From contig NZ_CP107899.1 of the NCBI RefSeq assembly GCF_036013915.1, positions 6,014,001-6,078,000 on the forward strand: a stretch of 64,000 nucleotides of DNA, written 5' to 3'. Positions 39,450 to 40,622 of the stretch are shown here, piece by piece; the first letter of the stretch is position 1, and the number at the start of each line of letters is the position of its first letter. The notes below the pieces were generated by a model. The model had not been told where the DNA came from. It worked only from the letters and a program-made list of their open reading frames with translations, and did not search any database. The position numbers and the translations under genes were made by a program. The stretch is from Streptomyces sp. NBC_00464 (GTDB lineage: Bacteria > Actinomycetota > Actinomycetes > Streptomycetales > Streptomycetaceae).

Positions 39450-40181
39450 GTGGCGAAACTCAATCAGATCATCGCAGTGGAGAAGGGCGTCAAGTCCAAG
39501 GCTCACCAGGACCTGACGGCGGCGCATCACGGCCTCCAGAAGGCCGGTCTGCTGGCCGGGATCTCCCGGACGTACCAGCCGAAGGACGAGGAGGGCGAGC
39601 AACTGCCGCCCGAGTCGACCCTGGTGCAGGTCAAGGCCGAGGACGTGCTGCGGGAGACCGCGGCGACCCTCACCCGCCTCTTCGACGTGACCGCCACGAA
39701 GGACTGGGCGAACTGCGCGGCCCGAGCCGATGTCTCGGTCGACGGACGCGTCCTGGTGAGCGGCGTGCCGGTGTCGTATCTGCTCTTCCTGGAGAAGCAG
39801 CTCACGGACATCAACACCTTCGTCCGCAAGCTCCCGGTGCTCGACGCCTCCGAGGCGTGGGCCCAGGACCCGTCGACGGACTCCTGGAAGACCGAGCCGG
39901 TGCGGACCCTGCGGACGAAGAAGGTGCCCCGCAACCACGTGAAGGCGGAGGCCACCGAGAAGCACCCGGCGCAGGTCGAGGTGTACTACGAGGACATCCC
40001 GATCGGCTACTGGACGACCGTGAAGTTCTCCGGGGCGCTGCCCGCGCGGCGGATCAACGAGCTGCTCGACCGGGTGGAGAAGCTCCAGCAGGCCGTCAAG
40101 TTCGCCCGCGAGGAGGCCAACGGCGTGGACGTCACGGACCAGCGGGTGGGTGATGCGGTCTTCGGTTACCTCTTCGGATGA
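39450..40181 (+). CDS. Conserved-looking protein of unknown function upstream of the permuted tRNA-like RNAs
   Basis: 243-residue soluble protein, mixed alpha/beta, with no signal peptide or membrane segment. It begins MAKLNQIIAVEKGVKSKAHQ, contains two helical regions (DVLRETAATLTRLFDVTAT; RINELLDRVEKLQQAVKFAR) and a basic patch RTLRTKKVPRNHVKAEATEK. I do not recognise a catalytic motif; it may be the DUF7873 type, but I am not sure. The GTG at 39450 has no Shine-Dalgarno site; TGC-TAGTTT (extended -10) ends 7 nt before it, suggesting a leaderless message. The RNA array begins about 90 nt after the stop on the same strand with no terminator between, so the protein and RNAs are probably co-transcribed. 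Confidence 0.75.
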   Translation: MAKLNQIIAVEKGVKSKAHQDLTAAHHGLQKAGLLAGISRTYQPKDEEGEQLPPESTLVQVKAEDVLRETAATLTRLFDVTATKDWANCAARADVSVDGRVLVSGVPVSYLLFLEKQLTDINTFVRKLPVLDASEAWAQDPSTDSWKTEPVRTLRTKKVPRNHVKAEATEKHPAQVEVYYEDIPIGYWTTVKFSGALPARRINELLDRVEKLQQAVKFAREEANGVDVTDQRVGDAVFGYLFG

Positions 40182-40199: not shown

Positions 40200-40241
40200 C
40201 CCCGGCGGCGGTCGACGCGGCCGGGGTGCGCGAGGAGCGCA
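40200..40241 (+). other. Tandem hairpins: possible degenerate third permuted unit
   Basis: CCCCGGC (40200-40206) pairs with GCCGGGG (40220-40226), the same acceptor arms as tRNA-like 1, and is followed by TGCGC-GAGGA-GCGCA (40227-40241), placed where a D-arm would be. The nine bases GCCGGGGTG recur at 40333-40341. There is no T-arm before it. It may be a decayed unit, or an alternative partner for the acceptor strand at 40299. Confidence 0.4.
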
Positions 40242-40270
40242 AAGCTGAAACTGAAGTTTGTCGTGAAGAC

Positions 40271-40364
40271 GCGGTTCAAGTGGAGGTTCGAGTCCTCCCC
40301 CCGGCACTTCCGTACCTCCCGTACGGTTGCGGGCCGGGGTGGCCCAAATGGCAGAGGCGGCCGC
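40271..40364 (+). ncRNA. Circularly permuted tRNA-like RNA 1
   Basis: The 3' half comes first: anticodon-stem 3' strand GCGGT (40271-40275), variable loop TCAAGT, T-stem GGAGG/CCTCC with loop TTCGAGT (40282-40298), acceptor 3' strand CCCCGGC (40299-40305), discriminator A, then CTTC. After a linker holding a small hairpin (CCGTAC/GTACGG) comes the 5' half: acceptor GCCGGGG (40333-40339), TG, D-stem GCC/GGC with 11-nt loop CAAATGGCAGA, G26, and anticodon-stem 5' strand GCCGC (40360-40364). Acceptor 7/7 pairs; anticodon stem 4 Watson-Crick plus one G-U, extendable by G40365-C40270. The break lies in the anticodon loop; the bases right after the stem are GA, so there is no U33 and no anticodon can be assigned. 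CCA is not encoded. Confidence 0.8.
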
Positions 40365-40439
40365 GATCAATCTCAGACTCTTGCTCCAGACTCAGCATGC
40401 GCCGCCTATCGCCGGATCAACCGGGCCCGTGCCCGTGCG

Positions 40440-40509
40440 CGTCGAGATGCCGGTTCGACTCCGGCCCGCGGAGCTTCGGTCTGCGGTCGTCTAAAGGCAG
40501 GACGCGGCG
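40440..40509 (+). ncRNA. Circularly permuted tRNA-like RNA 2
   Basis: Same permuted order as unit 1. 3' half: anticodon-stem strand CGTCG (40440-40444), variable loop AGAT, T-stem GCCGG/CCGGC with loop TTCGACT (40449-40465), acceptor strand CCGCGGA (40466-40472), discriminator G, then CTTC. The linker is only 7 nt and contains C-TTCG-G. 5' half: acceptor TCTGCGG (40480-40486), TC, D-stem GTC/GAC with loop TAAAGGCAG, G26, anticodon-stem strand CGGCG (40505-40509). Acceptor pairs 7/7 with one U-G; anticodon stem 5/5 with one U-G. In the non-permuted order none of these stems closes. No U33 follows the stem (AC), so identity is unknown. Confidence 0.8.
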
Positions 40510-40568
40510 ACATAAAACTGACACGGGACCTTTAAAAGTGCCGGCGTGCCGTACAGGCGGCAATCACA

Positions 40569-40599
40569 GGGCTCGGGGGCCGGCTACGCCCCCGGGCCC
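40569..40599. terminator. Terminator after the tRNA-like array
   Basis: 12-bp stem GGGCTCGGGGGC/GCCCCCGGGCCC with one U-G pair and a 7-nt loop, 60 nt after tRNA-like 2 and 24 nt from the stop of the convergent peptidase gene. A smaller hairpin TGCCG/CGGCA (40547-40562) precedes it. Confidence 0.85.
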
Positions 40600-40622
40600 G
40601 CTCCCGTTCCGGGCCCCGCACG

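What the first reader, a model, noticed from the sequence alone, without database searches (positions are those of the whole stretch)
40271..40509. Two circularly permuted tRNA-like RNAs in tandem
Each unit contains every stem of a tRNA, but in the order 3' half then 5' half. Unit 1: acceptor CCCCGGC/GCCGGGG (7/7), T-arm GGAGG-TTCGAGT-CCTCC, D-stem GCC/GGC with GG in the loop, anticodon stem GCCGC/GCGGT. Unit 2: acceptor CCGCGGA/TCTGCGG (7/7, one U-G), T-arm GCCGG-TTCGACT-CCGGC, D-stem GTC/GAC, anticodon stem CGGCG/CGTCG. Spacers 8-9, 26 and the variable loops (6 and 4 nt) have near-normal lengths. Permuted tRNA genes are known from red algae and some archaea; I know of none in bacteria. Neither unit has U33 after the stem, so they may be tRNA mimics rather than decoding tRNAs.
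Basis: partly seen in the sequence, partly recalled or inferred. Interest (0 to 1): 0.96.

Follow-up and report, generated by a model that had tools for sequence, protein, structure and literature searches.

The report
Two-headed permuted tRNA mimic RNA
Directly after an uncharacterised gene called DUF7873, Streptomyces bacteria and some phages carry a conserved stretch of DNA whose RNA is predicted to fold into two tRNA look-alikes with their halves swapped, each on its own stalk, and which likely works together with the DUF7873 protein to grip enzymes that normally handle tRNA.

Summary
Window 40242-40600, directly 3' of DUF7873 (PF25283), predicts a structured RNA (transcript untested): two stalks, each capped by a cloverleaf in permuted order (T arm, closed acceptor, D arm), plus a terminal hairpin. 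Covariation is decisive: in module II 96.2% of cells pair (slid controls at most 46.5%) and 29 of 37 pairs change on both sides; in module I 18 of 34 do. All 32 DUF7873 genomes among 61 match the module II model beside the gene, none full-length elsewhere. So do 80 of 80 named Streptomyces loci and 27 of 27 viral loci.

These are not permuted tRNA genes: there is no anticodon loop. Nor is the swap new to bacteria: Ro60-bound Y RNAs (YrlA) are circularly permuted tRNA mimics. What differs: two heads in one RNA, constant linkage to DUF7873, no Ro60 gene in this genome, no Rfam family at gathering threshold. I read it as a Y-RNA-like two-headed tRNA mimic that likely forms an RNP with DUF7873. 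The RNP and its client enzymes are inferred.

The parts
39450..40181 (+). DUF7873 (PF25283) gene, 243 aa, likely GTG start; the constant neighbour of the RNA
   Evidence: Pfam 2.4e-118; start chosen by alignment of 32 homologues; stop codon 40179-40181
40200..40226 (+). 5' hairpin CCCCGGC...GCCGGGG between the stop codon and module I; presence and sequence vary among homologues
   Evidence: sequence; in the MFE fold of the longer stretch
40244..40396 (+). Module I: stalk P1 (GCTGA 40244-40248 with TCAGC 40392-40396, and inner pairs) carrying tRNA-like head 1
   Evidence: covariation; model R2
40271..40364 (+). Unit 1, permuted tRNA-like head 1 (anticodon-type stem, T arm, acceptor closed by a 27-nt loop, D arm)
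   Evidence: all 7 acceptor pairs change on both sides in homologues
40306..40332 (+). Loop closing acceptor 1 (discriminator A, then C), with hairpin CCGTAC/GTACGG; length 4-50 nt in homologues, ACCA at its start in 7 of 12 viral units
40401..40561 (+). Module II: stalk P4a (40401-40406 with 40556-40561), P4b (40410-40415 with 40541-40546), P3 (40423-40431 with 40522-40530) carrying tRNA-like head 2
   Evidence: RNAalifold, pair counts, model R1
40440..40509 (+). Unit 2, permuted tRNA-like head 2; acceptor closed by GCTTCGG
40569..40599 (+). Terminal G+C hairpin with GGCTA/GGATA-type loop
   Evidence: found in 116 of 132 loci by a search for a GGNTA loop with at least 10 of 12 stem pairs; no T-run terminator here by scan

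Best explanation
Window 40242-40600 carries two covarying stem systems, each capped by a tRNA-like cloverleaf in circularly permuted order, and it is likely transcribed as an RNA of about 360 nt that would form a complex with the DUF7873 protein encoded just upstream and act as a two-headed Y-RNA-like tRNA mimic. Shown by covariation: stalks P1, P4a, P4b and P3, both acceptors, both T stems, D stem 2 and the anticodon-type stem of head 1. Shown by linkage: the sequence and DUF7873 travel together in bacteria and phages. Inferred: the RNA is made as, or cut from, the DUF7873 transcript; DUF7873 binds the stalks; the heads, held as closed hairpins with a normal T-loop/D-loop elbow, dock onto enzymes that read the tRNA elbow and acceptor (for YrlA these are PNPase, TruB and DusA), so that the particle brings such an enzyme to other RNAs or shields tRNA from it. 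In phages, where it often lies near tRNA genes and sometimes beside Ro60 and further Y-like RNAs, this would serve tRNA upkeep during infection.
For: Covariation on sequence-only alignments of 26 loci each: module II 37 pairs, 96.2% paired, 29 with double changes, 0/500 shuffles; module I 34 pairs, 95.3% paired, 18 with double changes, 0/500. D-loop GG in 228 of 229 units. Linkage: DUF7873 in 32 of 61 genomes and module II beside it in 32 of 32, one cut by a contig end (16 of the 32 are in the model's own alignment); 80 of 80 named Streptomyces loci (8 in the alignment) and 27 of 27 viral loci (2 in the alignment), while the other window neighbours recur in at most 30 of 80. Y-RNA kinship: the best relaxed Rfam hit is YrlA over the full model (22.1 bits, E 0.028 for 491 bases; 32-39 bits in 6 of 12 phage loci). 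My model of module II in turn finds Y-like RNAs beside Ro60: 15 of 33 TROVE genomes have a partial match within 1.5 kb of the TROVE match (read). One viral record holds DUF7873, this RNA, Y-like modules and a Ro60 ORF in a row. Head 1 is missing in 21 of 80 Streptomyces loci while its stalk stays.
Against: No transcript, binding or phenotype data. DUF7873 is near neutral (window copy pI 6.2; 32 homologues 5.5-7.8), not an obviously basic RNA binder, and its AlphaFold model matches no known fold confidently. The single-sequence fold is only modestly better than shuffles (z -1.89), its centroid drops the stalks, and a longer stretch folds with a different module II stalk. Linkage also fits a cis-acting 3' UTR. 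Client enzymes are carried over from YrlA. Ro60 is absent from this genome and found in only 4 of 22 viral records; 12 of 27 viral loci have no tRNA gene in the fetched flank.
Confidence: 0.5

Rival explanations
1. It is a double Y RNA for Ro60: DUF7873 is an accessory, and the RNA gates or tethers Ro60 where Ro60 exists.
For: YrlA-like heads; 4 of 22 viral records carry Ro60, two with it right beside the DUF7873 locus; Ro60 loci of relatives carry similar heads. Among 61 genomes 22 have both DUF7873 and TROVE, 10 DUF7873 only, 11 TROVE only, 18 neither: a loose positive association.
Against: No TROVE in the own genome while the RNA is intact, and 9 more genomes have DUF7873 without TROVE; Ro60 loci have Y-like RNAs of their own.
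Confidence: 0.2
2. It is a cis-acting 3' UTR of the DUF7873 mRNA: tRNA-like folds recruit RNase P or RNase Z and set mRNA ends or stability.
For: Lies directly 3' of the same gene; discriminator-CCA often encoded in viral loci (7 of 12 unit 1, 13 of 22 unit 2); no promoter found by a simple sigma-70 scan.
Against: A processing signal would hardly need two elaborate covarying stalks; head 1 is dispensable while its stalk is kept; tight UUCG-type loops are, by inference, poor pre-tRNA ends.
Confidence: 0.15
3. It is a decoy that soaks up tRNA-attacking nucleases of host or phage defence.
For: Lies in or at the edge of tRNA arrays of GodonK, Phendrix and Racecar; 15 of 27 viral loci have a tRNA gene in the fetched flank.
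Against: No anticodon loop, so anticodon nucleases have no target; no PADLOC match for the window's or GodonK's DUF7873, and only a partial 0.0073 hit for L135 that I take as chance; also kept in many bacterial genomes.
Confidence: 0.1
4. They are true permuted tRNA genes, ligated and cut into tRNAs as in red algae and archaea.
For: Exact permuted cloverleaf; encoded CCA in many viral loci.
Against: The anticodon-type stem opens into conserved stalks with no 7-nt anticodon loop; Rfam calls no tRNA at gathering threshold and ARAGORN's only call, tRNA-??? 40220-40307, covers just part of unit 1; 21 of 80 lack one head.
Confidence: 0.03

Closest known systems
Bacterial Y RNA, YrlA (Rfam RF02553), partner of Ro60/Rsr
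   Same: A stalk capped by a circularly permuted tRNA mimic with T arm, acceptor and D arm (PMC11472068 and PMC8394870, passages); weak full-length CM similarity.
   Different: Two heads and two stalks in about 360 nt against 90-150 nt; tied to DUF7873, not TROVE; below the YrlA gathering score of 69.
Permuted pre-tmRNA (two-piece tmRNA)
   Same: tRNA-like domain whose 3' half precedes its 5' half (recalled; only listings seen).
   Different: No tmRNA match at this locus, although the same tool finds the tmRNA of phage GodonK; two heads.
Circularly permuted tRNA genes (Cyanidioschyzon, Thermofilum; organism names recalled)
   Same: Order 3' half then 5' half (listing and start of abstract of PMC3978253 and PMC3218864).
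   Different: Those yield decoding tRNAs; here no anticodon loop exists.
Tandem identical tRNA genes
   Same: 3' half of one plus 5' half of the next looks permuted; found for tRNA-Asn in this genome.
   Different: No complete tRNA flanks units 1 and 2; colinear acceptor pairing averages 4.6-4.7 of 7 (6 or 7 in 8 of 42) against 7 of 7 permuted in 42 distinct loci (units had been picked by pairing of at least 6).

Membership tests
Bacterial Y RNA (YrlA) | Permuted tRNA-like head on a stalk | tested here: met
   Covariation in both modules; YrlA CM aligns end to end at low score
Bacterial Y RNA (YrlA) | Reaches the Rfam RF02553 gathering score (69 bits) | tested here: not met
   22.1 bits in the window, 32-39 in 6 of 12 phage loci; Y-like RNAs beside Ro60 in the three loci examined also miss it (39.8 at best), so the threshold is weak evidence
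Bacterial Y RNA (YrlA) | Ro60/TROVE partner in the same genome | tested here: not met
   0 hits in the own genome, control rang; 4 of 22 viral records have one
Bacterial Y RNA (YrlA) | Single head, 90-150 nt | tested here: not met
   Two heads, about 360 nt; size range from PMC8394870 passage
Bacterial Y RNA (YrlA) | Binds Ro60 through the stalk | not testable with these tools
   needs binding assay
Permuted tRNA gene | 3' half precedes 5' half with full acceptor, T and D stems | tested here: met
Permuted tRNA gene | Anticodon loop with U33 and a readable anticodon after ligation | tested here: not met
   stems run into stalks P1 and P3, no anticodon loop
Permuted tRNA gene | BHB motif and circular intermediate | not tested
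   no RNA data here; motif not searched
tmRNA | tmRNA covariance model match with tag frame | tested here: not met
   no RF00023 match at the locus; found elsewhere in L031 by the same tool
DUF7873 (PF25283) | Match above the Pfam cut-off | tested here: met
   394.6 bits against 27

The most novel reading that the evidence does not exclude
DUF7873 and its twin-headed permuted-tRNA RNA are the founding members of a new class of ribonucleoprotein, independent of Ro60, that phages carry near their tRNA genes and that streptomycetes keep as a chromosomal system; each head imitates a tRNA elbow and acceptor (often with CCA built into the closing loop in phages) to seize tRNA-handling enzymes.
Probability: 0.4. 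Interest if true: 0.9.

Novelty: new variant of a known kind. Interest (0 to 1): 0.8.

Why it matters
It extends permuted tRNA mimicry from single-headed Ro60 Y RNAs to a second RNA architecture with its own protein family of unknown function: 6339 homologues at E <= 1e-3 from one search. It gives DUF7873 a likely RNA partner, links phage tRNA genes to Y-RNA biology, and makes the question of what permuted tRNA mimics are for testable in Streptomyces strains that lack Ro60.

Tried and rejected

Rows dropped: A2 used 26 of 45 deduplicated module II loci (L022 too short; viral loci other than L114 and L115, and L100 and L101, left out as divergent); A3 used 25 of 30 plus L003. Several viral loci are near-duplicates (L116/L117, L118/L137, L122/L123, L124/L126, L125/L127). 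L138 and L139 had no full gene and were not searched with R1 or R2; Mimi and Talia1610 were not fetched. In the 137-locus scan the detector saw 2 units in 101, 1 in 33, 0 in 2 and 3 in 1. One search scored 38 candidates a genome with strict filters, so absence there is not proof. The four primary Y RNA papers are not held, so Y RNA facts come from passages of other papers. DUF7873 in print: none found in one search of the library; other literature searches.

Full report
What was claimed. Reading the sequence confirms every stem. A scoring script finds only these two sites at 27 or more in both strands of the 64-kb window and none in 40 dinucleotide shuffles, one strand each. ARAGORN makes one call here, a tRNA-??? 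over 40220-40307 that takes in only part of unit 1, and Rfam finds nothing at gathering threshold.

Homologues. A DNA search of 61 genomes (own and 60 relatives) gives 33 with a match; all 30 loci held from it (L001-L030) have a DUF7873 gene just upstream. DUF7873 itself is in 32 of the 61, the same set minus one weak 35-nt hit (G031); in G010 the DNA match lay elsewhere, but model R1 finds the RNA beside the gene. Named genomes gave at least 533 stretches encoding relatives; the best 80 were kept, all Streptomyces. The closest, S. poriferorum, encodes the 241-aa query stretch with 100% identity, so the window is taken as Streptomyces. IMG/VR gave 26 viral loci, and annotated phages include Gordonia phages GodonK and Phendrix and Arthrobacter phages Racecar, Mimi and Talia1610. 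In GodonK, Phendrix and Racecar the gene sits in or at the edge of the tRNA array; 15 of the 27 viral loci scanned have a tRNA gene in the fetched flank and 12 do not. In a wider draw 6 of 296 genomes of the phylum have DUF7873, all of the same genus. The protein search also lists names such as Nonomuraea, Streptosporangium and Planobispora.

Structure. Sequence-only alignments were made of 26 loci for each module (A2, A3). RNAalifold on A2 recovers, without being told, stalks P4a, P4b and P3, the T stem, the 7-bp acceptor and the D stem; on A3 it recovers the acceptor, T stem and outer P1, but a different D pairing. Pair counts: module II 37 pairs, 96.2% of cells paired against at most 46.5% when slid, 29 pairs with changes on both sides (shuffle mean 14.9), 0/500 shuffles as good. 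Module I with the revised stalk: 34 pairs, 95.3% against at most 46.3%, 18 pairs with double changes (shuffle mean 7.9), 0/500. All 7 acceptor pairs of both heads are compensated, as are 2 of 5 (head 1) and 4 of 5 (head 2) T-stem pairs and 4 of 5 pairs of the anticodon-type stem of head 1. The anticodon-type stem of head 2 was not in the counted structure. The MFE of 40242-40600 by itself has the same architecture, but its energy is only modestly better than shuffles (z -1.89, 4 of 100), its centroid differs, and a longer stretch folds with another module II stalk; the case rests on covariation. Across 229 units the D loop holds GG in 228.

The closing loop. Acceptor loops run from 4 to 50 nt in unit 1 (median 11) and 6 to 49 in unit 2 (median 7). 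In viral loci the loop begins with discriminator plus CCA in 7 of 12 unit 1 and 13 of 22 unit 2; bacterial unit 1 has ACCA in 17 of 85 and unit 2 NCCA in 1 of 110. In GodonK both heads encode it, while 2 of the 17 tRNA genes in the fetched stretch end in CCA (read; the script's own count of 3 includes one CCA that is not at the end). Short UUCG-type caps suggest that the acceptor stays closed.

Core and heads. Covariance models R1 (module II) and R2 (module I) were built. R1 is found next to DUF7873 in 80 of 80 named Streptomyces loci, 27 of 27 viral loci and 32 of 32 DUF7873 genomes among the 61, one of them cut by a contig end; 8, 2 and 16 of these are in the model's own alignment. It has no full-length match elsewhere; 49 of 61 genomes have some match, the others being partial. 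R2 is found in 80 of 80 Streptomyces loci, but 21 of them score 96-127 instead of at least 187 bits because head 1 is missing. In the seven such bacterial loci read, the stalk is kept and a short stem, or in L015 almost nothing, takes the head's place. R2 is found in 26 of the 27 viral loci, L120 and L128 weakly and L130 in part; L131 shows only the head region that module II shares. The window's other neighbour genes recur in at most 30 of the 80 loci.

Link to Y RNAs. With relaxed thresholds the best Rfam family at the locus is YrlA, the bacterial Y RNA (22.1 bits, E 0.028 for 491 bases, whole model), and it scores 32-39 bits in 6 of 12 phage loci. Conversely R1's head region matches within 1.5 kb of the TROVE match in 15 of the 33 TROVE genomes (read); two such loci were read and carry two permuted heads each. 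One viral record has, on one strand, DUF7873, the twin RNA, a Y-like module, a tRNA-Pro called by ARAGORN (it overlaps another permuted match, which is therefore ambiguous), a further Y-like module and a 554-aa Ro60 ORF. In another, Ro60, tRNAs, DUF7873 and the RNA follow each other. In all, 4 of 22 viral records have TROVE, many being fragments. Among the 61 genomes 22 have DUF7873 and TROVE, 10 DUF7873 only, 11 TROVE only and 18 neither; the window's own genome has no TROVE. From print: YrlA gives circularly permuted superpositions with tRNA (PMC11472068); its stem holds Rsr and its tRNA-like domain holds PNPase, and TruB and DusA modify it (PMC8394870); some jumbo phages carry TROVE, which in cells works with a tRNA-like partner (PMC7824862). 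Only passages of these papers were seen.

Mechanism. Shown: covarying fold, linkage, absence of head 1 in some loci. Inferred: transcription as a discrete RNA, DUF7873 binding the stalks, heads docking on tRNA-handling enzymes. Against: no RNA data, a near-neutral protein, no confident fold match. Rivals are a Ro60 Y RNA, a 3' UTR processing element, a nuclease decoy and true permuted tRNA genes.

Verdict. Topology known in kind (Y RNA); this family, with two heads and DUF7873, was found neither in Rfam at gathering threshold nor in the papers searched (for DUF7873; for the rest). New variant of a known kind, of high interest.

Noticed in passing
window 40569-40599; e.g. L031, L130, L132: The RNA ends in a G+C hairpin with loop GG(A/C)TA in 114 and GG(G/T)TA in 2 of 132 loci (searched for as GGNTA); in some phages a T run follows. 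Could be a protein site rather than only a terminator.
   Followed up: partly
G000:C1:5438560-5438711 (L154): Two tandem identical tRNA-Asn genes imitate a permuted tRNA in scans; a trap for such searches.
   Followed up: yes
L155 (G007), L156 (G033): Ro60 loci of relatives carry two Y-RNA-like permuted heads each that miss Rfam's YrlA threshold.
   Followed up: partly
L158 1252-5399 (viral record G064): DUF7873, twin RNA, Y-like modules, tRNA-Pro and Ro60 in one block.
   Followed up: partly
L124, L126 after the DUF7873 stop: A stretch that to my eye reads like an HNH endonuclease gene (not searched) separates DUF7873 from the RNA, which model R1 finds behind it.
   Followed up: no
L031 1-334: GodonK also shows the end of a tmRNA gene just upstream of the array (RF00023, 50.1 bits); no feature is listed over it.
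   Followed up: no
L116 189-408: Possible group I intron in a viral contig (44.7 bits, below gathering 50).
   Followed up: no
Deinobacterium chartae (control genome of the genome search): Both TROVE and DUF7873 ring in this one named control.
   Followed up: no
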